This document shows, piece after piece, positions 1 to 38,132 of a stretch of DNA of 38,132 bases (the first letter of the stretch is position 1; every line of letters begins with the position of its first letter). Location of the stretch: IMG/VR virus record IMGVR_UViG_3300035663_000040, positions 1 through 38,132 of that record; one strand, written 5' to 3'. Origin of the DNA: a virus. The position numbers and the translations under genes are program-made. Below the pieces are notes generated by a model. The model made no database searches. It had not been told where the DNA came from and worked only from the letters and a program-made list of their open reading frames with translations.

Positions 1-255
1 TGAGTGCCGTAATGTTTCCTCGAACGATGCTTAAAGCTGCAAGCCCATTCACGCTAACTGTTGCGGCTCCGGTGTTTGATTGATGAGCAAGGAAAGAAAC
101 AACCATCCCATTTAGGTCGGAAGAAGAACTTATGTTGGGGGCGATTGTCAGATTGTAGGTATTAGCTGCCCCGGTCGAAGAGCCCGCATAAAGAGAGGAA
201 TCGTTGTCAATTCCAAAGAACAGGTTGTCGTAAGTGTACTTTGTAACGTCCGCAG
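1..255. repeat. Left copy of terminal redundancy (circular overlap)
   Basis: These 255 bases recur at 37878..38132 with five substitutions, at 128, 188, 206, 209 and 242 (right copy 38005, 38065, 38083, 38086, 38119). A single reading frame crosses the joint without interruption, so this is most simply the overlap of a circular or circularly permuted assembly and not a functional long terminal repeat. Confidence 0.9.
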
Positions 256-4211: not shown

Positions 4212-4492
4212 CTAATAGTCCCAGCCAGTCCTTTTATCTGCTGAATAGCCTCAAGTGTCTGCCCTTCCAAGCTTCCAAGAAGCGCCACAAACTGCCCGAA
4301 TTCTGCGCCCCTAAAGTAAAGAGACTCGTAATACCTAGGCACGAAAGCACCATCCACAGTGTTACCGTAAGCTAGGCATATGTGCGCGTGCGCGTCCTCT
4401 TGACTCCACTCAGATCGGGGCAGCGCCACAACATTGATCATCGCTATCCGCACTTCCGTTACTTGCGCTTGGTCCAGTTCCAACGTTGCCAT
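4208..4492 (-). CDS. Hypothetical late protein, 94 aa
   Basis: A small protein with a mixed alpha/beta pattern and no recognised domain. The ATG at 4492 has a good ribosome-binding site (AGAGG). Its first 83 bases overlap the 3' end of the glycosyltransferase gene in another frame. This long overlap coincides with a low-complexity, probably non-essential glycosyltransferase tail. It ends next to the start of the 146-aa gene, so the two are likely co-translated. Confidence 0.6.
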   Translation of the reverse strand: MATLELDQAQVTEVRIAMINVVALPRSEWSQEDAHAHICLAYGNTVDGAFVPRYYESLYFRGAEFGQFVALLGSLEGQTLEAIQQIKGLAGTIR

Positions 4493-5603
4493 GACTTGCC
4501 TCTTCTAAAATCCTATGCGTTGCTCGTGCCGTGTTATCCCAGCTAAATATCTTTGCAGTGATTAAGCCGTTCTCAATTCGATGTCGTGTCGCCTCGGGCC
4601 AATCAAGAGCATAGTTCACTACGTACTTAATATGATCCGAAGAGTGTTCGCACTTCCACGAATTGCTATCGTCGCAAAACTCCGCAAGCCCATCGACTCT
4701 TGTGGTAATTAAGGGAATGCCCCTTGCGAGAGCCTCTAAAGCCACTATGCCAAACGGCTCTTGGTTACTCGGCATCACAACAAAGCTTGCGTTCTGATAC
4801 GCGCTATCACGCCGCGACCGGGGGACGTGCCCAAGGTATCTGAAGTTCGGGAGTTTCTCGGCTGCTCTAATACGTTTCATCGCGTCTGTCTTCTCGGCTT
4901 CCTCTTGAGGAATTGCGGCTATCTGCCCAGCTACGGACACGCGAAAAGCAGGGTCGCGCTCTGCTATCTCAACCACATGCTCCCAGCCTTTCTGCGGGTC
5001 TATGCGCCCCATGAACAAAATGCTGCGTTCTGGCTTCCACTCAACCTGCCTCGCTGCTTCTACCCCGTTATAAACAACATCAATGGGCCTCTCGCACCCC
5101 ATGTGCATCTTGGCGTAAGTCGCCATCGAGCGAGACACACAAATCACGCGGTCAGCTTCAAGCAATGCAATCTGCTCGTAAGTAGGAGGTACCAAAGTTT
5201 GGTCATTTGCCGGGCGATTCTGCGCGGCCATCATCTCATGCTGAAATAGATGGAAGTGCGCGACCCAAGGAATGCCGGTAATCTTCCGCAAGTTGCGGGC
5301 AATCATCTGCATATCCCAGTCATGCGCATGAATCACGTCAGGCGTCCAACGCTTGATAATATCGAGGCAGTGGATTAGGTACGCTTCTGAATTAACCAAC
5401 AAGTTAGTAGGGAAACCGGGGTCAAAATCATAGCCGCACGTGCTCTTAGGAACGGTCACAGTCCAAGTGGGGTTTTGGTCCCACGTAAGGTCAGAGCATA
5501 CGTGATGCACGTTGCGGAACCGCTTATTCAGCTGCAGAACGCACTCGCCGCGCCCGCCCATAATGCGGTCAGACTCCACGCACAAGGATAATATTCTGGT
5601 CAT
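4410..5603 (-). CDS. GT-B fold glycosyltransferase (GT4-like)
   Basis: About 397 aa from the ATG at 5603, which overlaps the preceding stop as ATGA; a GTG at 5630 is possible. The family pattern is clear: an N-terminal Rossmann domain with PDVIHAHDWDM, then VICVSRSM, a linker with VVYNGVE, and a C-terminal domain with ILFMGRIDPQKGWE and the nucleotide-sugar motif EPFGIVALEALARGIPLITT. Retaining GT4 enzymes transfer a sugar from a nucleotide donor. The acceptor could be virion protein, DNA or host surface polysaccharide; the sequence does not say. It sits inside the head operon, which suggests glycosylation of a virion component. The last ~20 residues are low-complexity and overlap the next gene. 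Confidence 0.85.
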   Translation of the reverse strand: MTRILSLCVESDRIMGGRGECVLQLNKRFRNVHHVCSDLTWDQNPTWTVTVPKSTCGYDFDPGFPTNLLVNSEAYLIHCLDIIKRWTPDVIHAHDWDMQMIARNLRKITGIPWVAHFHLFQHEMMAAQNRPANDQTLVPPTYEQIALLEADRVICVSRSMATYAKMHMGCERPIDVVYNGVEAARQVEWKPERSILFMGRIDPQKGWEHVVEIAERDPAFRVSVAGQIAAIPQEEAEKTDAMKRIRAAEKLPNFRYLGHVPRSRRDSAYQNASFVVMPSNQEPFGIVALEALARGIPLITTRVDGLAEFCDDSNSWKCEHSSDHIKYVVNYALDWPEATRHRIENGLITAKIFSWDNTARATHRILEEASHGNVGTGPSASNGSADSDDQCCGAAPI

Positions 5604-6028
5604 GGATAAGCCGTCCCCATTATGCGGCACGCAAGCGTAGTTGCTCCAGCAGTGGTGTTGAGAAACTCAAAAACTACGGTTCCTGCTGCGTTGTCAATGT
5701 ACGCTTTAACTAGCCTCACGGTGCTCCCGCCATAAATCGTATCGGAGCTAATTGAAGCGCGAGAATCGTCCATTATACTTGGGTATGCAGCCACTGAAAC
5801 GCCGCCGCTCCTCCCAGTCGAGGAGGTAGGCCGAGCCTTGAAGTGATTTCCTTGATACCCCGACGATCCGGCGATTGCCGTTGCGGTGGAAATAACTCCA
5901 TTTGCCGCGCTCGCAAAAATTGGAATCGCAATCGTGTACAAAACAGTAGCGCTGCCTGCGATTGCCTGCGAAACAGTTGCAGAAAAGTCATATGCGCGGG
6001 GGAACCACCCGATTGAATTACTGCTCAT
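5600..6028 (-). CDS. Hypothetical beta-rich virion-like protein, 142 aa
   Basis: Ser/Ala/Thr-rich with alternating hydrophobic residues throughout (for example TVSQAIAGSATVLYTIAIP), as in small phage beta-sandwich proteins. No catalytic residues are evident. It overlaps both neighbours by 4 bases, so it is translationally coupled to the 321-aa protein before it and to the glycosyltransferase after it. A possible role is a head-fibre or decoration component and substrate of the adjacent glycosyltransferase; this is inferred only from gene order. Confidence 0.6.
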   Translation of the reverse strand: MSSNSIGWFPRAYDFSATVSQAIAGSATVLYTIAIPIFASAANGVISTATAIAGSSGYQGNHFKARPTSSTGRSGGVSVAAYPSIMDDSRASISSDTIYGGSTVRLVKAYIDNAAGTVVFEFLNTTAGATTLACRIMGTAYP

Positions 6029-6990
6029 GTGTAATAGACGAAGGTTACCCCGTCCCCGCTAACAGTTGAGTCAAGATAAATATCGTTGGCGTCGTCAATC
6101 TCAAGGCTATATGGCTGCCCAGCAGAAAGCGGGATACCTTCACGAGTGGCAAGCGTTGCAATACAGCCAGAACCGCCGACGACTATCGTGCCGGTGTTAT
6201 CCGTCTCTGCTACGAGATCCACTTTCTTACAAGGCGTTGATGAGGCTACGAGCTGCACCCGAGTCCCCGCAGTAGTGACAACTTTGCGCCCGGAAACAAT
6301 GCCGGTAATATCGTGGCCGACACGGCCAACAATTGCAGAGCCTGTGGTTAGTGCCGGGAGAGATGCAATTGATACCGCCTGCGTGCCGCTTGGGATGTTC
6401 CTAACCAGTAACGCCGGATCGGTCGCGGATGGTGCCGACTCTGTTACAAGCGCCGCTATTGAGTCGCCACCGATTGCAAGCTTAGGCCCTTGAACGAAAC
6501 TTCTTGTTACTAGACCTGCAAGCCCTGCTCCGCTAGCTACTGTGCTCGAAGTACTTATCGAGTTGAGGCGAGTTTGTAGTTGGGAGGTTTCGCTATATGC
6601 GTAAAGACCAGCTGAAGGGATACCATCCTCCGACGCGGGCCAAGCAGCCCAAGCAGGATTACCCTCGAAAGGAGCAGCTTTAAGAACACCGATTCCCGTG
6701 AACTGCCCTTGGCTTGTTTCGGTGCCGGCCTTGGCCGTGTCCTGCTCAGTCGCGAGCACTACAGGAATGCTTGAAGCTTCCGCCTTTTGACCAAGTGACG
6801 TGGCTACGCCGCCAACCTGCGTGAGGTTCACGTCCTGCGTGCCGGAGGGCGTGATAGTCCAGCTCGTGACCTCGTTACCGCTGCCGTCGTAAAGTATCAT
6901 CTTCTGATACTCCTCGCCGCCAATGGTCTTGGTCGCGGGAATGTAATCAGGGTTAGATGAGTTTGGCCCGTTGGATATTGTGGGACTCAT
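6025..6990 (-). CDS. Hypothetical beta-rich virion-like protein, 321 aa
   Basis: A complete frame, rich in Thr, Ser, Gly and Val, with predicted beta structure over most of its length. The first ~130 residues mention no known enzyme motif but resemble the extended N-terminal regions of phage surface proteins; the C-terminal ~90 residues look like a compact beta domain (TRVQLVASSTPCKKVDLVAE). It starts at the portal stop with a 1-base overlap and ends 4 bases into the next gene. Probably a virion surface protein; the function is not established from sequence. Confidence 0.6.
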   Translation of the reverse strand: MSPTISNGPNSSNPDYIPATKTIGGEEYQKMILYDGSGNEVTSWTITPSGTQDVNLTQVGGVATSLGQKAEASSIPVVLATEQDTAKAGTETSQGQFTGIGVLKAAPFEGNPAWAAWPASEDGIPSAGLYAYSETSQLQTRLNSISTSSTVASGAGLAGLVTRSFVQGPKLAIGGDSIAALVTESAPSATDPALLVRNIPSGTQAVSIASLPALTTGSAIVGRVGHDITGIVSGRKVVTTAGTRVQLVASSTPCKKVDLVAETDNTGTIVVGGSGCIATLATREGIPLSAGQPYSLEIDDANDIYLDSTVSGDGVTFVYYT

Positions 6991-13730: not shown

Positions 13731-14318
13731 ATGAACACTTTAGACTTTGTTTCACTCGCAGTATCCACCGACCAAACGCGGCACAACCTCACGGGCGTAT
13801 ACCGTGACACAAACAAGCTAGTCGCTACAGATGGTCACCGGATGCACTGGGTCAATTCCTTACCGGATGCAACTCCGAGTTATTTGGACGGGCGTAAGGA
13901 CTCCCAATTTCCGGACATCTCGCAGGTCATGCCCAAGGGGGATCCTTGCTATGCATTCACCTTCAAGATCGATAAGGGAGACGAAAAGCGATTGAAGGGG
14001 CTTCTTTCACTCGCTAAAGCTTGTGACCCAAAAACGCCTTGCGTATCGGTGTACGTTAGGGATTCTAGGATCGTGTTTCACCTTGTAAGCAAGGAGCACC
14101 AAACCACTGCCACGATCGAAATCTTGGGAAAGGTTCGCGGTAACACTTCCGACATCATAGGGCTAAATCTTAACTACTTGCTTGACGCAATGGCGCCCGC
14201 GCTCAAGGGGCTAGGGGATGTCACGATCGAGCCCTACGGGAAAATGGGTCCCGCGGTTATCTCTTGCGAGTTACCGGGGCAGTCTTACCGAGCAATCGTA
14301 ATGCCCACTAGGCTCTAA
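13731..14318 (+). CDS. Truncated DNA sliding-clamp (DnaN)-like protein
   Basis: 195 aa, about half a bacterial beta clamp (~366 aa). The segments match clamp domains II-III in order: NKLVATDGHRMHW (compare VATDGHRLA in DnaN), FPDISQVMPKG (compare FPDYRRVLPKN), GLNLNYLLDAMAPAL (compare GFNVSYVLDVLNAL), and a C-terminal YRAIVMPTRL (compare AYVVMPMRL). The end of a normal clamp, next to the partner-binding cleft, is kept while the first domain is absent. It could form an unusual clamp, load with host clamp, or compete for clamp-binding proteins. First gene of the rightward early operon, with TTGGAGA upstream of the ATG. Confidence 0.75.
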   Translation: MNTLDFVSLAVSTDQTRHNLTGVYRDTNKLVATDGHRMHWVNSLPDATPSYLDGRKDSQFPDISQVMPKGDPCYAFTFKIDKGDEKRLKGLLSLAKACDPKTPCVSVYVRDSRIVFHLVSKEHQTTATIEILGKVRGNTSDIIGLNLNYLLDAMAPALKGLGDVTIEPYGKMGPAVISCELPGQSYRAIVMPTRL

Positions 14319-15718: not shown

Positions 15719-16354
15719 ATGAGACGAATCAAGCTTACCGCACTCGCGGTCCTTTTCTTTTCTGCCTCTTATGCGTTCGCAGTAATTGTCCCTAAACTTG
15801 GGGCTGAAGTCGCGGAAGCGGCTCAAGAACTGCGCGATCGGATAAACTCCAAGCTCACAAGGGTTGAGTATGTGCAACAATTCATCAAGCCCGAACCTAA
15901 GCCCCTTAGCCAAATGATTAACGAGGCCGCGAAGAACCATAAACTACCATCCATACTCATTGCCGCATTAATCGAACAAGAGTCAGGCGCCAAGCTCCGG
16001 ACCGACCGCGTGAGGTACGAAGAGCACCTGCAATCTCGGTTTAAGTGCAAGCCCCATGAGACAAACGCCGAGTGTAGGGCGTATGCGAGTTCGTGGGGCC
16101 TTGGGCAAGTTGTTTACGGAATTTGGAAGGACTTCTGCAAGCTTGAGTCCTACTCCGACCTACTTGACCCCGAGCGCAACCTCGACTGTGCGGGAGCAAT
16201 TCTGCGATCTTGTTTGAATCGACGGACCAAAGAATCGAAAAGTGACTCGGTTAGGAACTGCCTCTCGGAGTATAACGGCGACCGAACGGGCCGATATGCA
16301 GGTGAGGTGTTGAGCCGTTATGTTGCAATCAGTATTGAAAAGAATCTGGGGTGA
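15719..16354 (+). CDS. Secreted lytic transglycosylase-like protein (SLT fold)
   Basis: 211 aa. N-terminal signal peptide (basic MRRIK, hydrophobic core to about residue 22, AFA cleavage-type site), a spacer, then an SLT/lysozyme-like domain. The catalytic motif is IAALIEQESGA (Glu ~88), followed by SSWGLGQVV. Such enzymes cleave the glycan strand of peptidoglycan. It is not in the lysis block but in the early region next to the integrase, so it may act in wall remodelling or as a lysogenic accessory gene. The start is preceded by GGGAGACGCC, the shared early leader. The end overlaps the integrase frame. Confidence 0.75.
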   Translation: MRRIKLTALAVLFFSASYAFAVIVPKLGAEVAEAAQELRDRINSKLTRVEYVQQFIKPEPKPLSQMINEAAKNHKLPSILIAALIEQESGAKLRTDRVRYEEHLQSRFKCKPHETNAECRAYASSWGLGQVVYGIWKDFCKLESYSDLLDPERNLDCAGAILRSCLNRRTKESKSDSVRNCLSEYNGDRTGRYAGEVLSRYVAISIEKNLG

Positions 16355-17246
16355 TGTTGTGCCCCTTAGTGAACACTTAGAAACTTGGCTAGGCTTCTGG
16401 GCAATCAATACCCAAAGGTCCTATAGGCGCTCCCTTGAGAGGTTCCAAGCCTCCCTTGGGGGCGTCTCTCTTCTTAACGCAACTGAGTTGCATTGCACGC
16501 GCTGGGCCACGCAAGTTAGAAAGGACGTCTCTCCCTGGTCCGCACGCCATCAAATCCTTGCGCTCAAGAGTGCCTACGATTACCTTTTACGAAACAAGCT
16601 CGTCAAAGAGAACCACTGGGCACGCATCCTCGACTCTATGCCTCGGGCCAAGCCTGGAGAACAGCGCCCCACAAAGCTCGTTCCCTTTGACCAAGTTCTC
16701 CGAATCATCTCCGCACCTTCTGGGATAACAACCGACGGCATCAGGGACCGCGCCGCGTTCGCCGTGTTCTTCTTTTGCGGCCTACGTTCTTCCGAACTCT
16801 TCGAGCTCCGCATCGGGAGCGTCAAGACAACCGACTCCGGCGCCATGTACCTGCTCCTTTCAAAAACCAAGTCCCAGAAGTTCCAGAAGGTCGCAGTCCC
16901 TGACACCGCGGTCGAGTATCTTAACAAGCTCCGAGAACTGCGCGATCGCGAGGGCGCCAAGCCTGACGCCTACCTCTTTACGAAATTCACGGACGGACGA
17001 AGCGTTGGCAAGCTTACCCGCGCAATTCTCCGCAACTCTTGGGCCTACTACACTCGCGCATGTGGGGTTGAGGGAACAGGTATGCACGCGGCACGCGCAA
17101 CCCTTATAACAAAGCTCTTAAGCGACGGAGTGTCCTACCGCGAAGTCCAAGAAGTCTCTCGCCACTCTTCTGTGCAAATGCTTGAAGTCTACGACAAACG
17201 TAGGTTCGAAATCGAAGAGCAAGCCAACAGAAAAATCAAGTTCTAA
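16320..17246 (+). CDS. int: Tyrosine recombinase / integrase
   Basis: 308 aa with an N-terminal core-binding domain (LETWLGFWAINTQRSYRRSL) and a C-terminal catalytic domain. All active-site residues are visible: Arg156 in CGLRSSEL, a Lys at ~182-184 in SKTKSQK, His256-x-x-Arg259 in GMHAARA, His282 in SRHSSV, and Tyr291 in LEVYDKRR. It can catalyse site-specific integration and excision or dimer resolution. A GTG at 16359 with GGGGTGA 4-5 nt upstream is an alternative start that would remove the overlap with the upstream gene. A 12-4-12 inverted repeat 25 bp after the stop is a candidate core site. Confidence 0.9.
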   Translation: MLQSVLKRIWGDVVPLSEHLETWLGFWAINTQRSYRRSLERFQASLGGVSLLNATELHCTRWATQVRKDVSPWSARHQILALKSAYDYLLRNKLVKENHWARILDSMPRAKPGEQRPTKLVPFDQVLRIISAPSGITTDGIRDRAAFAVFFFCGLRSSELFELRIGSVKTTDSGAMYLLLSKTKSQKFQKVAVPDTAVEYLNKLRELRDREGAKPDAYLFTKFTDGRSVGKLTRAILRNSWAYYTRACGVEGTGMHAARATLITKLLSDGVSYREVQEVSRHSSVQMLEVYDKRRFEIEEQANRKIKF

Positions 17247-19546: not shown

Positions 19547-20367
19547 ACCATCCTCTTGAAGCATTCGACACTCGCCTTGTCTACAACCAAGACTTCCGGG
19601 CGTACCGAAACGCGAAGGGCTACAACCAAAGCTCTTTAAAGCCTGGCCGGAAGGGTAACTGGGCCGCGGTTAAGTACGTTATTGACGGTGGAGCAAGCGA
19701 AGACTCCGACGCAAGAGTTGAGGGCCGTCTTATTCACTGCGCCTTACTTACTCCCGAGCTTCTTGAAAAGGATTACGTCTTCTGTGAGCCGCGTCAGCGC
19801 AAGGACAAGACTGATGGCCGGGAGTGGGTGTCTCACTCGGTCCACTCAAAAGCGTTCAACCTAACGGGCGCCGTATCTAAGAACGAAACGTTCACATCCC
19901 TGATGCGGGGCACGCAGACAGAGATATCCGCCTATTGGACCTGCCCAAAGACGGGGCTAAATCTCAAGGGCCGAGTCGACGCTTACCATCCCGAGCATAA
20001 GTACATTCTTGACCTGAAGACGACCGCCAAGGGTGCCGACCCGATGAGTGCAGCCCGGACAATCGCGGCTCTTGGTTACGATGGGCAGGCGGCTTGGTAC
20101 GTTGAAGGGCTTAGAGCTAACGGCCTTGAGGTTGAGCAATTCATCTTCGCGTTCCTTGAGAAGACCCCTCCCTACTCCGTTGGATTCTACCGACTCGACG
20201 CGGAGGACCTCGCCCGCGCACACACAGACAACAAAGAACTCCTCGCTCGCCTTGCGGACTGCCTCGAAAAGAACAGATGGCCCGCATATTACAACGAGAT
20301 TGTGGAGCTCAAGATACCGTCTGAATTTTTAAAAAACGTGGAGAGTTACGATGAGCTGGAAGCTTAA
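19543..20367 (+). CDS. RecE-like PD-(D/E)XK exonuclease
   Basis: 274 aa from the ATG at 19543 (GGAGGT 3 nt upstream; the frame is open further upstream but overlaps the zinc-ribbon gene). Family features: VEGRLIHCALLTP near residues 59-71, Glu127 in TQTEISAYW, GRVDAYH (Asp146), and ILDLKTT (Asp157, Lys159), the D...(D)xK nuclease core seen in RecE and exonuclease VIII type proteins. It would resect double-stranded DNA ends for homologous recombination. No separate annealing protein was recognised; the SSB-like gene next to it may fill the partner role. Confidence 0.75.
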   Translation: MNHPLEAFDTRLVYNQDFRAYRNAKGYNQSSLKPGRKGNWAAVKYVIDGGASEDSDARVEGRLIHCALLTPELLEKDYVFCEPRQRKDKTDGREWVSHSVHSKAFNLTGAVSKNETFTSLMRGTQTEISAYWTCPKTGLNLKGRVDAYHPEHKYILDLKTTAKGADPMSAARTIAALGYDGQAAWYVEGLRANGLEVEQFIFAFLEKTPPYSVGFYRLDAEDLARAHTDNKELLARLADCLEKNRWPAYYNEIVELKIPSEFLKNVESYDELEA

Positions 20368-20815
20368 ATCCTTTAAACAGAAAGACCCCGGAAGCTATGC
20401 CGGGACCCTTAAGCATGTGGGAGAGGCTCTTGCCAAGGAGTGGTTCGAGGACACCCGCACCTGGAGCGAGGAGGCAACGATTCCTGTTATCAGATTCACC
20501 TTCGACCTTGACGTCGACGGAGAGATGACGACCGAGGAGATTGACTGCAATCCAACCTCATCCTCCAAGGGGCGCCTCGTAATTATGCTTAAAGGCATGA
20601 GCCCAAAGACTTGGAGCGAAGCCGTCCGGATTAACGAAGCCGCAATGCAGAAGTTCGCGGAAGGGCTCGTCGGCAAACAGTTCCTACTTACCTACGCAAC
20701 GAACGAGAAGGGCAAGACGAGATTCTCAAGCATAATCCCCGCCCCTTCAGTCGTCTCGAAGGTCACGAAGCAAGAGCCACTACCCGCCGTCGACGATGAC
20801 GATATTCCCTTTTAA
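20351..20815 (+). CDS. Single-stranded-DNA-binding-like protein
   Basis: 154 aa. The body is beta-rich (IPVIRFTFDLDVDGEMT, then KQFLLTYATNE), compatible with an OB fold. The strongest sign is the last residues, AVDDDDIPF, practically the conserved acidic tip of bacterial SSB that recruits partner enzymes. I infer binding of single-stranded DNA in phage replication or recombination. The start overlaps the RecE-like gene by 17 bases. Confidence 0.65.
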   Translation: MSWKLKSFKQKDPGSYAGTLKHVGEALAKEWFEDTRTWSEEATIPVIRFTFDLDVDGEMTTEEIDCNPTSSSKGRLVIMLKGMSPKTWSEAVRINEAAMQKFAEGLVGKQFLLTYATNEKGKTRFSSIIPAPSVVSKVTKQEPLPAVDDDDIPF

Positions 20816-20824
20816 AGGACGCCC

Positions 20825-21088
20825 GTGAAAGCCAAAGAGATTACATATCGCCGCACGTTCCACCTCGGGCACATGAGCTGCGAAACAATCGAGATTCGCA
20901 TTGAAGTCTCCGACGGGGAGACCGCGAGCGAGGTGTATGAGATGGCGAAAAAGTTTGTCATGTCCAAGACCGAAGGACCGCGAGATGGGAGTGGTCACAA
21001 TTCTGTGGCGCCTCCAAAAATCCGTAAGCCTCTTGTCTCCCGGATTCCTTCGGCCCCTGGACTTGAGACAGAAATAGGAGGTGACTAA
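20825..21088 (+). CDS. Hypothetical early protein, 87 aa
   Basis: GTG start at 20825 with AGGA about 7 nt upstream. The first ~50 residues look like a small alpha/beta unit (CETIEIRIEVSDGETASEVY), the remainder is Pro/Arg/Ser-rich and probably unstructured. No known family is recognised. It ends in a TAATG overlap with the protease gene, which has a perfect GGAGGTGA ribosome-binding site within this gene's end. Confidence 0.55.
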   Translation: MKAKEITYRRTFHLGHMSCETIEIRIEVSDGETASEVYEMAKKFVMSKTEGPRDGSGHNSVAPPKIRKPLVSRIPSAPGLETEIGGD

Positions 21089-21780
21089 TGCCGCCAAAGC
21101 ACACTTCCGAACGGTCCGCCCCCCACCGTGAACAAGGGGGGTTTTTACCTCAACAGATGCCGTTCTTGCTAGGGCTATTAATTGGCCTGGCCTTGTTCGG
21201 ATTTATTTACGTCGCATATGCGAGGGCCGAAACCGGGGTCCGAGTGCTTCACCTAACGGGAGAGCGTTCGGTTTCTCGAACAGAACTTGACGAGATGCTT
21301 TACGTCACGAGCCGCAAGCTTGCCTTAGCCGGGAAGCCGATTCGCGTGATGAAAGTTATCTCCAAGCCCGACACATGCAGCGACAAGAATTTGCTTCAAG
21401 GATTCCCCTCTCAATATGGATGCTACAAAGAGCTCTCTGACAACCTACGCAGATTTAGAAATGGACCAACCCTCGTCATCTCGCCCCCTATTAAAGGAAG
21501 TGATGGTACTTCATATCTGGGAGGGGCCGCGAGGATTGACTGTATCCGCCACGCTTCCCGAAGGGTCTCATGGTTTGCCGCCGCAAGTGGTGTCTCGGCT
21601 TATCGAAACGCTGTCGGAAGCAGCCACGAGCTGGGTCATTCTTTCGGAGCCTCCCACGTCGACGACGAGTCAATCATGAACACGCTATCGCTGGGCATAT
21701 CGAAGTACAACCTAATCCTTAGCTTCAACGCGAAGTCTATAGGCGAAATGAGACAATGCAGAAACAGGGGGGCATTTTGA
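21088..21780 (+). CDS. Membrane-anchored metzincin-like metalloprotease
   Basis: 230 aa. A single hydrophobic segment at ~25-46 (MPFLLGLLIGLALFGFIYVA) serves as signal anchor or uncleaved signal; the remainder would be outside the cytoplasm. The zinc motif is full metzincin HExxHxxGxxH, HELGHSFGASH (residues 180-190, Glu181 catalytic), with a Met-turn-like SIMN at ~195-198. Cys residues at ~97, 112 and 152 could form disulfides. Zinc peptidases of this clan are very rare among phage genes. It has a perfect ribosome-binding site and is coupled to the genes around it, so it is expressed in the early region. The substrate is unknown: host envelope proteins are a plausible guess. Confidence 0.75.
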   Translation: MPPKHTSERSAPHREQGGFLPQQMPFLLGLLIGLALFGFIYVAYARAETGVRVLHLTGERSVSRTELDEMLYVTSRKLALAGKPIRVMKVISKPDTCSDKNLLQGFPSQYGCYKELSDNLRRFRNGPTLVISPPIKGSDGTSYLGGAARIDCIRHASRRVSWFAAASGVSAYRNAVGSSHELGHSFGASHVDDESIMNTLSLGISKYNLILSFNAKSIGEMRQCRNRGAF

Positions 21781-22019
21781 CGCAGGCACATGAAAAAATA
21801 CTGAAGCTGAGAGATGAGATTGTGATGCCTGACAAGCCCTGGGCCGCTGGCTCCCTTGTTCAGGACCCGTCCGCGGAGAAGCCTATTATCCTCTTCTTGC
21901 TTGAAGGGAACGGGGGCTCCGTCGCAGAGATGTCAACCGCTGAGGCCGTTAAACTTGTGGGCGAGATTCTCGACGGGCTTAAACAGGTAGCCGATCACAT
22001 GGGAGGCAAAGCAAAGTGA
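21777..22019 (+). CDS. Small early protein, 80 aa (paralogue of the next gene)
   Basis: I choose the TTG at 21777: it overlaps the protease stop as TTGA and has GGGGGG just upstream; an ATG at 21756 gives 7 more residues. The C-terminal half (ILFLLEGNGGSVAEMSTAEA) aligns with the next gene's protein, and both end in a helix of the form KLxxxIL. No family recognised. It overlaps the next start as GTGA. Confidence 0.55.
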   Translation: MTQAHEKILKLRDEIVMPDKPWAAGSLVQDPSAEKPIILFLLEGNGGSVAEMSTAEAVKLVGEILDGLKQVADHMGGKAK

Positions 22020-22252
22020 AAGACGAAAAAGAACAAAGCGCAATTCTTGCGAAGATGCGAGACGCCCTAGACAAGGCGCCTAACGTTATCGAGTTCAGGG
22101 GGCTCAACTCCCCGGACGTTGATGAGATAATGCTTTTCTTCTGGACCGACAATGACCAATCCGCCGTGTGGAATATGACCAAGGAACAAGGCGTGAAGCT
22201 CGGCAATAAGATCCTTGAGATGTCAGAGACGAAGGGGCGCATAATTATATAA
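22016..22252 (+). CDS. Small early protein, 78 aa (paralogue of the previous gene)
   Basis: GTG start overlapping the previous stop. The segment IMLFFWTDNDQSAVWNMTKE followed by GVKLGNKILEM resembles the previous protein in spacing and in residues, which suggests tandem duplication followed by divergence. Function unknown. It ends 93 bases before the next gene, in a gap containing a perfect CCGAGC/GCTCGG hairpin (about 22304-22318). Confidence 0.55.
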   Translation: MKDEKEQSAILAKMRDALDKAPNVIEFRGLNSPDVDEIMLFFWTDNDQSAVWNMTKEQGVKLGNKILEMSETKGRIII

Positions 22253-22564: not shown

Positions 22565-22800
22565 CCACCAACGACGACAAGGCCCGGAAGGCGGCGGAGG
22601 AGTACAGTACACTGGTTAGAGAGACAGACGATGCCGAGGCTAAGAAACATGGTGCAATTGCTTGTCACCTCTACTCTACGGGCCAACTGAGAAAAGCATT
22701 TCTGGCCGGGTACCAATGGGCAATGCTTGGAAAGGGTGAGCCCATCAAGGCCATATATCACGATGACGCGCTCCCGCCCGCGCCGGAGGTAGGCAAATGA
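22561..22800 (+). CDS. Hypothetical accessory protein, 79 aa
   Basis: Acidic, helical, with ARKAAEEYSTLVRETDDAEA and then KAFLAGYQWAMLG, a pattern common in small phage accessory proteins. No family can be named. ATGA overlaps on both sides show coupling to its neighbours. Confidence 0.5.
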   Translation: MTTNDDKARKAAEEYSTLVRETDDAEAKKHGAIACHLYSTGQLRKAFLAGYQWAMLGKGEPIKAIYHDDALPPAPEVGK

Positions 22801-23012
22801 ATAAGCTGAGTGAGATAGGCACGGAATGCGAGTGGAACCAAGAGCCTCACCTGACGCCGTTAGAACCGTTTCATATTGTCTACACCCCCGCCGAGCGCCG
22901 TGAGTTGGTAAAAGCAGCGATTAATGGGTGGGAAAGCTTCAAGTGGCATCGAGGCTTTGCTGATGGGAAGCTACCGACGTTTGAAGAATTCTGTGAGGAG
23001 CAGGGTCTATGA
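22797..23012 (+). CDS. Hypothetical accessory protein, 71 aa
   Basis: A small acidic protein with FADGKLPTFEEFCEEQGL at its end. Coupled by ATGA overlaps to the genes on both sides. Not recognised; expressed as part of the accessory cluster. Confidence 0.5.
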   Translation: MNKLSEIGTECEWNQEPHLTPLEPFHIVYTPAERRELVKAAINGWESFKWHRGFADGKLPTFEEFCEEQGL

Positions 23013-23452
23013 GCACAAAACTGACCGCACGCTTGAGTGATGGGACGGAGTGGGAGGTGGTAGAGAGATGCGACACCCCCTTTGATATTAAAACAAATAC
23101 GATTTTAGATGGCTACGATCGGATGTTACTCAAGCCTCTGAAGCCCTCGCCGCCGAAGGAGTTATGGGTAGCGGTGGAGAATGCAACGGGTCTTTTTGGT
23201 GGCACGCGCCTTACTGATATTGGTAAGAACCTGAATCCAGACTATACAAATTTCCGCTACGTTCTCGCTGAAGAGCCCAAAGCCAAGCCGCAGCCGCGTG
23301 AGTGGTGGGATGTGAGATGCATACTGAATGATAAGGTCCTATGTTCTTACGACAACTACGGAGAAGCTCTAGGGCTACTGGTAAGGGAGAACGGGATAGC
23401 GGGGAGGACAGAGTTCGAGATCGTGCACGTTCGGGAGGTGCTGGATGGGTAA
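23009..23452 (+). CDS. Hypothetical accessory protein, 147 aa
   Basis: Mixed alpha/beta. The N-terminal ~50 residues begin KLTARLSDGTEWEVVERCD; the C-terminal part REWWDVRCILNDKVLCSYDN may be a second small domain. No motif recognised. Last of the four coupled genes; a 197-bp non-coding gap follows. Confidence 0.55.
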   Translation: MSTKLTARLSDGTEWEVVERCDTPFDIKTNTILDGYDRMLLKPLKPSPPKELWVAVENATGLFGGTRLTDIGKNLNPDYTNFRYVLAEEPKAKPQPREWWDVRCILNDKVLCSYDNYGEALGLLVRENGIAGRTEFEIVHVREVLDG

Positions 23453-23649: not shown

Positions 23650-23982
23650 ATGGCAACATGGCGACGGTCCAAGTTCTTCAATAAGCCGACGGTTGTAGAC
23701 GGCATCCGGTTTCACTCTCAGAAAGAAGCGCGGAGGTATAAGGAATTAAAGCTTGAGGAGAAGGCCGGCAAGATCCGGGACCTGAAGCTTCAGCCTCAGT
23801 TTGAACTCTGGCTAAACGGGAAGCTTATCTGCCGCTACATAAGCGACTTTCAGTACATTCAGGTCGAGCCAACGATGCAGATAATCGTTGAAGACGTGAA
23901 GGGCGTACTGACGGACGTTTATAAGCTCAAGAAAAAGATGTTCCTCGCGCTCTATCCGCAGTACGTCTTCGTTGAGTCCTAG
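23650..23982 (+). CDS. DUF1064 family protein (predicted nuclease)
   Basis: 110 aa with the recognisable family pattern VDGIRFHSQKEARRYKEL, then LQPQFEL, ICRYISDFQY, and IIVEDVKGVLTDVYKLKKKM. The Glu...Asp...(Glu-Asp)xK arrangement is the PD-(D/E)XK nuclease core. Members occur in phage replication/recombination regions and probably cut branched or damaged DNA. It ends the rightward region and overlaps the end of the leftward holin-like gene by 4 bases. Confidence 0.75.
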   Translation: MATWRRSKFFNKPTVVDGIRFHSQKEARRYKELKLEEKAGKIRDLKLQPQFELWLNGKLICRYISDFQYIQVEPTMQIIVEDVKGVLTDVYKLKKKMFLALYPQYVFVES

Positions 23983-24221
23983 AGAAGACCTTTAATCGGC
24001 TTCTGAGCCTTCACGCGGCCCCAGATTCCGAATAGGTTTCCGATAGCGGAGACTAAGATTCCAAGCACATCCCCAAAAATCGGGAACGGTAGCACGCCAG
24101 TCAGGACAAGAGCCTGATCGATGACGGGTGCAATTGCGACGATGTTACCGATGACGGACTTGGACTGAAGCAGCCCCTTTGATTCCTGAACCATACGTTC
24201 CTTAATGTTTAAGTAATTCAC
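23979..24221 (-). CDS. Holin-like small membrane protein
   Basis: 80 aa with two hydrophobic stretches (VIGNIVAIAPVIDQALVLTG, and FGDVLGILVSAIGNLFGIWG) and a basic end RVKAQKPIKGLL. Size, topology and location at the end of the lysis block fit a holin that opens the inner membrane. The start overlaps the end of the secreted Cys-rich gene by 20 bases. Confidence 0.6.
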   Translation of the reverse strand: MNYLNIKERMVQESKGLLQSKSVIGNIVAIAPVIDQALVLTGVLPFPIFGDVLGILVSAIGNLFGIWGRVKAQKPIKGLL

Positions 24222-25017
24222 CTACTGCCTTGAAGTACCGATTCGGGACATCTCCGCAGTTACGCTTCCGAGGATCGGTAAATCCCGTCCCCCGCAAACA
24301 GTTCATTCTCCGCCCCCAGATGAAGGCATAATCACAGTCCTTGAACTTCCGTTTAAAGGCGCCTACGTCGAGAGTCTGGAAGTCGTCCCCGTCAAGGTCT
24401 GCCCCGCAAGGTTTGCGTAGGGATGCGTCCGGGCCATGCTTTTCGCAGAGGTATCCGGGTACGCAGGGGCCATCGGCTGGGTTGTCGACAATCTCGCACT
24501 GCGGGAAGAACCTTTTAGACCGTGCGATTAGCGTGCGACGGGCCGGGACAGAGAGATTGCACTCTAGGCAAGGGGATACGTAGCACTTGAGATTCCGCCT
24601 TCCCTGAAGCAGTTTACGGGCTCTTGCCGCGACGTAGTTAAACCGGCTCATGAGCCTCGGGTCGGCCTCCCGTACCTTGGTATCCGCGCTCCGGACGGAC
24701 TCCCCGTGGAACACCTCTTGCTTGCCGCACACCCTCCCCCGCTCCCGGAAGCAGGTAGAGTTAGCTAGGTGAATCCGGACGACCTTGGGCCTTGGGTCAG
24801 ACAGAAGCTTATCCGCGCAGGGGCACTCGTCCCCAAAGCTCTGGGCAAGCCACCCGACCCGAATCGTATCGAGACCGTCGAAGGCCTTAAGGCTCTCGTC
24901 GCACTTCCACGTCTTGTTGCAGAGGGCAAGGTAGGAGGCGCCAACGTTGGTTTCCGCCTTCGCGAAGAACGGGAAGAGTAGGCACCCGAGAATGAAACCC
25001 TTACAGAACGATAACAT
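24202..25017 (-). CDS. Secreted Cys-rich protein in the lysis block (TIM-barrel-like)
   Basis: 271 aa. N-terminal signal peptide (MLSFCKGFILGCLLFPFFAKA), then a region with about 16 cysteines and alternating strand/helix units: TIRVGWLAQSFG, KVVRIHLANSTC, NLKCYVSPCLECN, CEIVDNPADGP, CDYAFIWGRRMNC. The order and the acidic or aromatic strand ends resemble a (beta/alpha) barrel of the glycosidase kind, stabilised by disulfides. It lies between a transglycosylase and a holin-like gene, so I infer action on the host envelope after export. I could not identify a family. Confidence 0.6.
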   Translation of the reverse strand: MLSFCKGFILGCLLFPFFAKAETNVGASYLALCNKTWKCDESLKAFDGLDTIRVGWLAQSFGDECPCADKLLSDPRPKVVRIHLANSTCFRERGRVCGKQEVFHGESVRSADTKVREADPRLMSRFNYVAARARKLLQGRRNLKCYVSPCLECNLSVPARRTLIARSKRFFPQCEIVDNPADGPCVPGYLCEKHGPDASLRKPCGADLDGDDFQTLDVGAFKRKFKDCDYAFIWGRRMNCLRGTGFTDPRKRNCGDVPNRYFKAVGELLKH

Positions 25018-25480
25018 TCTGGTATTCCCCCGAGTCGATATGCGCCAGCACTTCCCTCGGGTAGTCCTTGTTCCCTCCCCCGTTGTAGAGAAGCAGAGCC
25101 TTGTTTATGTCGTCGTTAGCCTTCGCAAGCTTTGACTTGAGGACTTTGACCCCCATCTCAATGCCCGTCTGGACGTTGCAGAGCTCCGTAAGGAAGGTCC
25201 CCTCAAAGCCGTGTTCGCGTGCGGTCGCCCCCATTACCTGCATAGGCCCAAAACTTGTCGCCCGAGCCATACGCTCCGTTGCCTCCGAGACGAGCTTAAA
25301 GCTAGGCACAAAGCCCGTGAGCTTCTTGCCTTGGATATACTTGTCGAAGAACGCGGGCTCGTAGCGCATTGCGAACGGATTCGCCCTCGACTCTTGCCAG
25401 ATCATCGCTGCAATAAGCTGGGGGTTAATCCCGCTCTGTGCGCTGACCCGGTATATGACTGGACCTATTTCTCTCTTCAT
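25001..25480 (-). CDS. Lytic transglycosylase (endolysin)
   Basis: 159 aa from the ATG at 25480 (GAGGA 5-6 nt upstream); the frame is open further but without a better start. SLT features: IAAMIWQESRANP with Glu30 as catalytic residue, ATSFGPMQVMGATA, then GIEMGVKVLKSKL and NKALLLYNGGG. It has no signal peptide, so it would need the holin-like protein for release. It cleaves peptidoglycan glycan strands at the end of infection. It overlaps the membrane/coiled-coil gene before it by 56 bases and the Cys-rich gene after it by 17. Confidence 0.8.
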   Translation of the reverse strand: MKREIGPVIYRVSAQSGINPQLIAAMIWQESRANPFAMRYEPAFFDKYIQGKKLTGFVPSFKLVSEATERMARATSFGPMQVMGATAREHGFEGTFLTELCNVQTGIEMGVKVLKSKLAKANDDINKALLLYNGGGNKDYPREVLAHIDSGEYQNVIVL

Positions 25481-25706
25481 CACGTTTCCTCTCGAACTCC
25501 CGTAGCCTCTCGGTAAGATTTGCCAAAACCGACTCGACCACTGCGAGTCTTGGGGTTTCCATGGAGATTGCCGCCCGAAGTGAGGTGAGTTCTGAGTGAA
25601 TGGCGCTGAGCCAAACGGTAAGGGTACCGATAATGACAGAGCTGCAAAGACCAAGGAGCCAATATAGTAGCTGCTTGACATTCCCGTTGCCGTTCTCCGC
25701 GCTCAT
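25425..25706 (-). CDS. Membrane/coiled-coil protein of the lysis block (spanin- or holin-like)
   Basis: 93 aa. An N-terminal membrane segment (LLYWLLGLCSSVIIGTLTVW) is followed by a coiled coil (LTSLRAAISMETPRLAVVES and VLANLTERLREFERKRDEE) and a charged end. One membrane helix with a periplasmic coiled coil is the plan of inner-membrane spanins; a holin regulator is also possible. First gene of the lysis unit, with the shared late promoter-like element D about 40 bp upstream. Confidence 0.6.
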   Translation of the reverse strand: MSAENGNGNVKQLLYWLLGLCSSVIIGTLTVWLSAIHSELTSLRAAISMETPRLAVVESVLANLTERLREFERKRDEERNRSSHIPGQRTERD

Positions 25707-37435: not shown

Positions 37436-38132
37436 TAGTTTACCTCAAGCTCAATCGCGGCTGCGACTCCGCAGTTTGCACCAGACCCAAAACTTCCAGT
37501 GTAAAGATAACAGTCAATGTTTGAAGAAGATGCCGTTGCCCCCCAATAGCCTCCCGAGGAAGTGCCAACGGATTGAGCTCGACATCCACCACAGACTGCG
37601 GCTTTCGCCGTGTAGGCATTGGGAAGAGTGAATCTAAGATAAGCTGCGGCGCCCCCAGTTGTTCCCGTAAAAACAACCCCAACCTGAAGAAGCTTGCGGC
37701 TATCAATCGACCACCTCGCACTTGTTATTACTGTTGAGGTGAAGGTTGTTCCCTGAGCCGAAAGGCTTGGCGTGTAGTCTGCGGGGAGAGTTGCAAAAGT
37801 GTTTGACGGGATTATGTATGCGCGAGTCGACGTAAGGAGAAGAGTCATCCCCTGATTCTGAAGAATCTCGCCACCCGTGAGTGCCGTAATGTTTCCTCGA
37901 ACGATGCTTAAAGCTGCAAGCCCATTCACGCTAACTGTTGCGGCTCCGGTGTTTGATTGATGAGCAAGGAAAGAAACAACCATCCCATTTAGGTCGGAAG
38001 AAGAGCTTATGTTGGGGGCGATTGTCAGATTGTAGGTATTAGCTGCCCCGGTCGAAGAGCCCGCGTAAAGAGAGGAATCGTTATCGATTCCAAAGAACAG
38101 GTTGTCGTAAGTGTACTTCGTAACGTCCGCAG
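37435..38132 (-). CDS. Tail-fibre/appendage-like protein, C-terminal part (start at 487)
   Basis: Continues the frame from position 1; the bases 37878..38132 repeat 1..255. The C-terminal part, as read here, holds VVSFLAHQSNTGAATVSVNG, a repeated-strand region (STRAYIIPSNTFATLPADY), and a Cys-rich beta end (AAVCGGCRAQSVG, later IDCYLYTGSFGSG). The complete protein of 309 aa has an attachment-type N terminus and a beta-rich C terminus, as expected for a short fibre or collar appendage. The stop overlaps the hub gene start. Confidence 0.7.
   Translation of the reverse strand, partial: ADVTKYTYDNLFFGIDNDSSLYAGSSTGAANTYNLTIAPNISSSSDLNGMVVSFLAHQSNTGAATVSVNGLAALSIVRGNITALTGGEILQNQGMTLLLTSTRAYIIPSNTFATLPADYTPSLSAQGTTFTSTVITSARWSIDSRKLLQVGVVFTGTTGGAAAYLRFTLPNAYTAKAAVCGGCRAQSVGTSSGGYWGATASSSNIDCYLYTGSFGSGANCGVAAAIELEVN
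37878..38132. repeat. Right copy of terminal redundancy (circular overlap)
   Basis: Same 255 bases as 1..255 with five substitutions, all in third codon positions of the fibre-like gene and all silent. See the left copy. Confidence 0.9.

What the first reader, a model, noticed from the sequence alone, without database searches (positions are those of the whole stretch)
21088..21780. A phage-encoded membrane-anchored metzincin-like protease
The full motif HELGHSFGASH with a Met-turn-like SIMN further on is the signature of metzincins (astacin, reprolysin, serralysin and matrixin clans), combined with an N-terminal membrane anchor. It is embedded in the early operon with a perfect ribosome-binding site. 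Extracellular metalloproteases are very unusual in phages; it may modify the host surface (receptor destruction, superinfection exclusion) or give the lysogen a new trait.
Basis: partly seen in the sequence, partly recalled or inferred. Interest (0 to 1): 0.75.

Follow-up and report, generated by a model that had tools for sequence, protein, structure and literature searches.

The report
Phage-borne exported metzincin-type zinc protease
This phage carries a gene for a small zinc protease of the metzincin fold (the fold of ADAM and matrix metalloproteases) that is probably sent out of the cytoplasm into the host's envelope, where it would cut some still unknown protein; phage genes of this general kind were already known, but this particular family is new to the databases searched here.

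Summary
The 230-aa ORF at 21088-21780 has HELGHSFGASH (180-190) and SIMN (195-198), a strong ribosome-binding site and a hydrophobic N-terminus. The motif is not a chance match: a 45%-identical homologue sits in a different phage contig (L032) and a remote one in a third (L137), both with zinc ligands, glutamate and Met-turn intact. Pfam matches are M12B/reprolysin, just below cut-off. An AlphaFold model (pTM 0.69) has metzincin topology; its 50 best PDB matches are ADAM/venom proteases, fragilysins and archaemetzincin. Its alignment contained other metzincins, so fold support is good but not independent. 'Membrane-anchored' needs revision: the homologue has an ordinary cleavable signal peptide and the AxA|ET site is conserved here, so a released periplasmic enzyme is more likely. 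'Very unusual in phages' is overstated: motif scans returned dozens of metzincin ORFs in viral contigs, and a phage-derived metzincin has been studied in Listeria. The gene lies in the replication-side operon of a probably complete 38-kb podovirus-like phage with an integrase. Most likely role: cleavage of a host envelope protein (superinfection exclusion, envelope weakening or lysogen trait); the substrate is unknown. New family, known kind.

The parts
21076..21084 (+). ribosome-binding site AGGAGGTGA, inside the end of the upstream gene
   Evidence: read in sequence
21088..21780 (+). gene for the 230-aa metzincin-like protein
   Evidence: homologues L032 and L137
21088..21228 (+). residues 1-47: long n-region, hydrophobic stretch 26-43, predicted signal-peptidase site A45-R46-A47|E48
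   Evidence: hydropathy; conserved AxAET start of the mature part in L032, which has the plain signal peptide MKTKTLLLSLLLSTPALA
21229..21777 (+). mature catalytic domain (residues 48-230); four Cys shared with L032 (C97, C112, C152, C224); no room for a separate prodomain
21625..21657 (+). zinc-binding motif HELGHSFGASH (180-190)
21670..21681 (+). Met-turn SIMN (195-198)
20351..20815 (+). upstream operon gene with acidic tail DDDDIPF (ssDNA-binding-protein-like by its tail only)
   Evidence: similar arrangement near the L032 gene; no Pfam match
20825..21088 (+). upstream neighbour, 87 aa, overlaps the metzincin start by one base
21756..22019 (+). downstream neighbour, 87 aa, overlaps by 25 bases; no signal peptide seen, no family match
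22797..23012 (+). operon gene with a homologue downstream of the L032 metzincin
23009..23452 (+). operon gene with a homologue downstream of the L032 metzincin

Best explanation
The gene encodes a small, prodomain-less zinc endopeptidase of the metzincin fold, closest in shape to M12B (reprolysin/ADAM) enzymes. SHOWN by sequence: complete HExxHxxGxxH plus Met-turn, kept in two homologues from other phage contigs; a hydrophobic N-terminus; a place in the + strand replication-side operon with a strong RBS. INFERRED: it is made with the early/middle genes, exported by Sec, probably cut at A47|E48 (possibly left as an anchor), folded in the periplasm with two disulfides, and active as a protease. 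PROPOSED (least certain): it cuts a host envelope protein during infection, with superinfection exclusion or host-envelope takeover the most likely use (about 0.35), then weakening of the envelope to help lysis (0.2), a lysogen trait (0.15), maturation of a phage-encoded envelope or lysis protein (0.1), other (0.2).
For: Motif and Met-turn, chance expectation 0.003. Homologue L032 at 45% identity with all active-site residues and four cysteines shared; remote homologue L137, HMM E 1.7e-6. Pfam: Reprolysin_3 E 2.3e-4 at 22.1 bits against cut-off 22.4; L032 Reprolysin_2 E 7e-6, 26.5 against 27. AlphaFold with 13 aligned relatives: pLDDT 66, pTM 0.69, strand/helix order of a metzincin; Foldseek PDB 85 matches with E<=1e-3, the 50 listed all metzincins, TM about 0.6-0.7. 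A weaker model from three sequences only (pLDDT 55) also put ADAM/venom proteases first. Export: signal peptide of L032 and conserved AxA|ET. Precedents: secreted phage-derived Listeria metzincin that raises sensitivity to phage lysis (PMC8235301); a zinc metallopeptidase domain that is toxic in the bacterial periplasm (PMC6899460).
Against: No library match passes its curated cut-off. Profile comparison with reprolysins loses its signal when the motif is removed, so the sequence case for M12B rests on the motif. The better AlphaFold model used an alignment of metzincins and is of moderate confidence. The five residues just before HELGH in L032 are missing or shifted in the window protein. No substrate, partner or expression evidence. 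L137 lacks the cysteines and has no clear cleavage site.
Confidence: 0.7

Rival explanations
1. Lysis accessory: the exported protease cuts envelope or outer-membrane-linked proteins so that lysis and release are faster.
For: Listeria Mtz-Tim pair increases sensitivity to phage lysis (PMC8235301); the L137 homologue lies in the late structural module, just before the scaffold and major head genes.
Against: In the window and in L032 the gene is in the replication-side operon, away from the transglycosylase genes and from the lysozyme gene; the phages have ordinary wall-degrading enzymes.
Confidence: 0.2
2. Lysogenic conversion: the enzyme is made by the prophage and gives the lysogen a secreted or surface protease activity.
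For: A tyrosine recombinase gene (16320-17246; phrog_1 E 5e-33, Pfam 5e-19).
Against: The gene is co-oriented and overlapping with replication genes, which are normally silent in a prophage; no repressor was identified; no prophage copy was found in the one genome scan possible.
Confidence: 0.15
3. The protein is metzincin-shaped but works inside the cell as a membrane-anchored or cytoplasmic factor, or is no longer catalytic.
For: Long n-region and an 18-residue hydrophobic stretch resemble a transmembrane segment; the stretch before HELGH is shorter than in L032.
Against: All catalytic residues are conserved in three diverged proteins; four conserved cysteines fit an oxidising compartment; L032 has a standard signal peptide.
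Confidence: 0.1
4. Chance motif in an unrelated protein.
For: Library matches are all sub-threshold and centred on the motif.
Against: Conservation in L032 and L137; chance expectation 0.003; fold search.
Confidence: 0.04

Closest known systems
M12B reprolysin/ADAM family (Pfam Reprolysin_2/3/5; MEROPS clan MA(M))
   Same: Zinc motif, preceding GG-A strand region, overall predicted fold (TM 0.6-0.7), best Pfam scores
   Different: All scores below the family cut-offs; only 7 residues from third His to Met; no prodomain and no accessory domains
Matrixins (M10) and archaemetzincins (M54)
   Same: Short His-to-Met spacing as in matrixins; archaemetzincin TM 0.64-0.65
   Different: Pfam M10 and M54 matches weak (E 0.11 and 0.02); no cysteine switch; no archaemetzincin cysteine pattern
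Listeria Mtz, phage-derived secreted metzincin with the TIMP-like partner Tim (PMC8235301)
   Same: Phage origin, Sec signal peptide, metzincin motif with Met-turn
   Different: Gram-positive host, paired with a lipoprotein next to it; no such partner was seen next to the window gene; homology between the two was not tested
Annotated phage metzincins (Maribacter phage Colly_1 matrixin-family protease, Lactobacillus phage 3-521 Zn-dependent protease; BFVD)
   Same: Phage-encoded, similar predicted fold (E 9e-5 and 2.8e-4)
   Different: No sequence match to any phage record in the tblastn search
VgrG2b C-terminal metallopeptidase (T6SS effector, PMC6899460)
   Same: Bacterial zinc metallopeptidase domain acting in the periplasm
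   Different: Delivered by a secretion system, has an immunity protein; the comparison is of function only

Membership tests
Metzincins (clan MA(M)) | HExxHxxGxxH/D zinc motif | tested here: met
   HELGHSFGASH at 180-190; kept in L032 and L137
Metzincins (clan MA(M)) | Met-turn after the third zinc ligand | tested here: met
   SIMN 195-198; SIMS in L032; TIMN in L137
Metzincins (clan MA(M)) | Fold: mixed beta sheet, active-site helix, C-terminal helix after the Met-turn | tested here: met
   Model pTM 0.69, Foldseek E about 1e-6 to metzincins; caveat: alignment held other metzincins and confidence is moderate
Metzincins (clan MA(M)) | Zinc-dependent proteolysis | not testable with these tools
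   needs purified protein
M12B reprolysin | Pfam reprolysin profile at its curated cut-off | tested here: not met
   22.1 bits against 22.4 (Reprolysin_3); L032 26.5 against 27 (Reprolysin_2)
M12B reprolysin | Similarity beyond the motif | tested here: inconclusive
   hhalign 95.7% with the motif; no signal without it
M10 matrixin | Pfam Peptidase_M10 at its cut-off, prodomain with cysteine switch | tested here: not met
   12.8 bits against 24; mature part starts directly with the first strand
Fragilysin | TIGR03935 at its cut-off | tested here: not met
   15.7 bits against 190.7: only the motif matches
Listeria Mtz-Tim pair | Adjacent TIMP-like lipoprotein partner | tested here: not met
   neighbours 20825-21088 and 21756-22252 have no lipobox or signal peptide by eye and no family match

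The most novel reading that the evidence does not exclude
The gene belongs to a new phage family of prodomain-less, disulfide-stabilised exported metzincins that are swapped between unrelated phages and made with the replication genes, to shave or process a host envelope protein and block competing phages: a proteolytic form of superinfection exclusion.
Probability: 0.2. Interest if true: 0.65.

Novelty: new member of a known kind. Interest (0 to 1): 0.38.

Why it matters
Exported proteases are a little-studied way for a phage to change its host's envelope. The motif scans suggest that metzincin genes recur in many viral contigs, small and exported or fused into tail proteins, with almost no experimental work outside Listeria. 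A clear active site (E181) and a small soluble domain make this one easy to test. If it turned out to remove a receptor, it would add a proteolytic route to superinfection exclusion.

Tried and rejected
Homologue searches with the protein alone found nothing in INPHARED, PLSDB or PHROGs and nothing in the seeded IMG/VR scan; the homologues came from motif-pattern scans. PDB 'Cake' hits are repeats of a designed protein summing weak matches, rejected. Fragilysin was considered because it tops NCBIfam and appears in the fold search: rejected as membership (15.7 bits against 190.7). hhalign against reprolysins looked strong (95.7%) but the motif-free control showed no signal, so it is not used as evidence for M12B. 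The first AlphaFold model (three sequences) was poor, pLDDT 55. Kin genomes could not be drawn for a virus record, so the host remains unknown. A TIMP-like partner was looked for next to the gene and not seen. Literature searches for phage matrixins and protease-based superinfection exclusion found nothing further.

Full report
WHAT IS THERE. The window is a whole virus record of 38,132 bases. Its first and last 255 bases match at 98%, and another contig, L122, runs across that junction at 99-100% identity, so the genome is probably complete. It has a terminase, a portal of the P22-like type, a major head protein and a head-closure protein on the - strand, and on the + strand (13.7-24 kb) a replication-side block: a sliding-clamp-like protein, DUF932, a tyrosine recombinase, a replisome-organiser-like protein and an AAA ATPase, a PDDEXK protein and a protein with an acidic tail. 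The finding, 21088-21780, lies inside this block: it overlaps the stop of the previous gene (TAATG), follows AGGAGGTGA, and overlaps the next gene by 25 bases. GC and third-position GC are like its neighbours'.

IS THE MOTIF REAL. HELGHSFGASH and SIMN are present as described. Given the composition, HExxHxxGxxH is expected 0.003 times in the six frames of the window. More important, it is conserved. A scan of IMG/VR with the DNA pattern for HELGHxFGxxH gave one ORF, in L032, that matches the window protein far above all others (phmmer E 8e-45, the next at 2e-5): 45% identity over 192 residues, all zinc ligands, the glutamate and the Met-turn kept, and four cysteines shared. A stricter pattern gave L037's like only in L032 itself and in L137, a third, remote member (HEVGHMRGAGH...TIMN; HMM E 1.6e-7 and 1.7e-6). 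In this sentence 'L037' is a slip to be ignored: the two loci returned are L032 and L137. A last scan for the Cys-Tyr region found only L032, so the family is rare in IMG/VR.

IS IT A METZINCIN. Pfam gives reprolysin-like profiles just below their cut-offs (22.1 against 22.4 bits here, 26.5 against 27 in L032). A control shows that profile similarity to reprolysins is carried by the motif: without it hhalign falls to the level of shuffled columns. AlphaFold with three sequences was poor (pLDDT 55), yet its best PDB matches were ADAM and venom metalloproteinases (E 0.008, TM about 0.4). With 13 other sequences from viral contigs aligned the model improved (pLDDT 66, pTM 0.69, active-site region about 80-88) and shows strand-helix-strand-(helix)-strand-strand-strand, the HExxH helix, the Met-turn and a C-terminal helix. 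Foldseek then gives 85 PDB matches with E<=1e-3; the 50 listed are ADAM/venom proteases, fragilysins, archaemetzincin and a Bacteroides metalloproteinase, TM 0.57-0.70. Because the alignment held other metzincins, this supports the fold without being independent of the motif. Together I take membership of the metzincin clan as well supported, and the subfamily as open.

WHERE DOES IT WORK. L032's protein starts MKTKTLLLSLLLSTPALA|ETPVRV, a textbook Sec signal peptide with its own RBS. The window protein has ...FLLGLLIGLALFGFIYVAYARA|ETGVRV: the AxA|ET site and the first strand are conserved, preceded by a longer n-region and a longer hydrophobic stretch. Export is therefore likely, cleavage probable, anchoring possible. 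The mature part begins directly with the first strand of the catalytic domain, so there is no prodomain. Portal relatives are mostly in phages of Gram-negative hosts, so 'periplasm' is an inference; the host itself is unknown.

GENOMIC BEHAVIOUR. L032's contig (39.8 kb) is a different phage: another terminase family, portal and head protein. Yet it carries the metzincin in the same kind of operon, followed by homologues of the same two genes (22797-23012 and 23009-23452), and it shares a 2.6-kb block with a glycosyltransferase (window 4227-6828) at 84% DNA identity. In the related phage G004 the portal gene is followed directly by the scaffold gene, without that block. In L137 the metzincin gene sits in the late module just before scaffold and major head genes. 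The gene thus behaves as an accessory gene that moves between phages.

HOW UNUSUAL. A complete scan for HExGHxxGxxHx5IM returned 47 stretches; 35 distinct ORFs, 27 with the motif in the first 260 residues, 16 of these with a signal-, anchor- or lipobox-like start by a simple rule. Not every IMG/VR contig need be a phage. Several more carry a matrixin domain in large tail proteins (L171, L174). Annotated phage metzincins appear in BFVD, and a secreted phage-derived metzincin with a TIMP-like partner was shown to sensitise Listeria to phage lysis (PMC8235301). The kind is known; the family is new.

HOW IT MOST LIKELY WORKS. Made with early or middle genes, exported, active without a prodomain once folded and disulfide-bonded, it would cut an envelope protein of the host. 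Early expression favours host takeover or superinfection exclusion over lysis; the late placement in L137, and the Listeria case, keep lysis in play; the integrase keeps a lysogen trait in play. A zinc metallopeptidase domain that is toxic in the bacterial periplasm (PMC6899460) shows that such an activity can matter there. Substrate and biological role are not shown by anything here.

Noticed in passing
window 4227-6828: Block with a GT4 glycosyltransferase and two other genes is 84% identical in DNA to contig G001 (L135/L185), although the two phages have different terminase and head genes: recent exchange, possibly host-surface related.
   Followed up: partly
L171, L174, L139 (also L143, L152, L153, L156): Matrixin (PF00413 above cut-off in the three tested) domains inside large phage tail/tape-measure or M23-peptidase proteins: virion-borne metzincins.
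   Followed up: partly
window 13731-14318: Protein resembling a DNA polymerase sliding clamp (phrog_947 E 5e-12; Pfam beta-clamp domain E 1.5e-4, below cut-off).
   Followed up: partly
window 1-255 and 37878-38132: Terminal direct repeat of 255 bases, only 98% identical; L122 runs across the junction.
   Followed up: partly
window 24202-25017: Secreted-looking, cysteine-rich 271-aa protein (start ...FFAKAETNVG) next to a transglycosylase gene; no Pfam or PHROG match.
   Followed up: no
window 15719-16354 and 25001-25681: Two separate SLT transglycosylase-domain proteins in one small phage, one with a signal-peptide-like start beside the integrase.
   Followed up: no
L185:17686-18003 (-): Phospholipase-A2-like protein (PF09056 E 6e-4, below cut-off) in the phage that carries the closest metzincin homologue.
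   Followed up: no
window 23979-24221 (-) and L185:16778-16993: Small hydrophobic proteins homologous between the two phages, holin-like by eye; no family match.
   Followed up: partly
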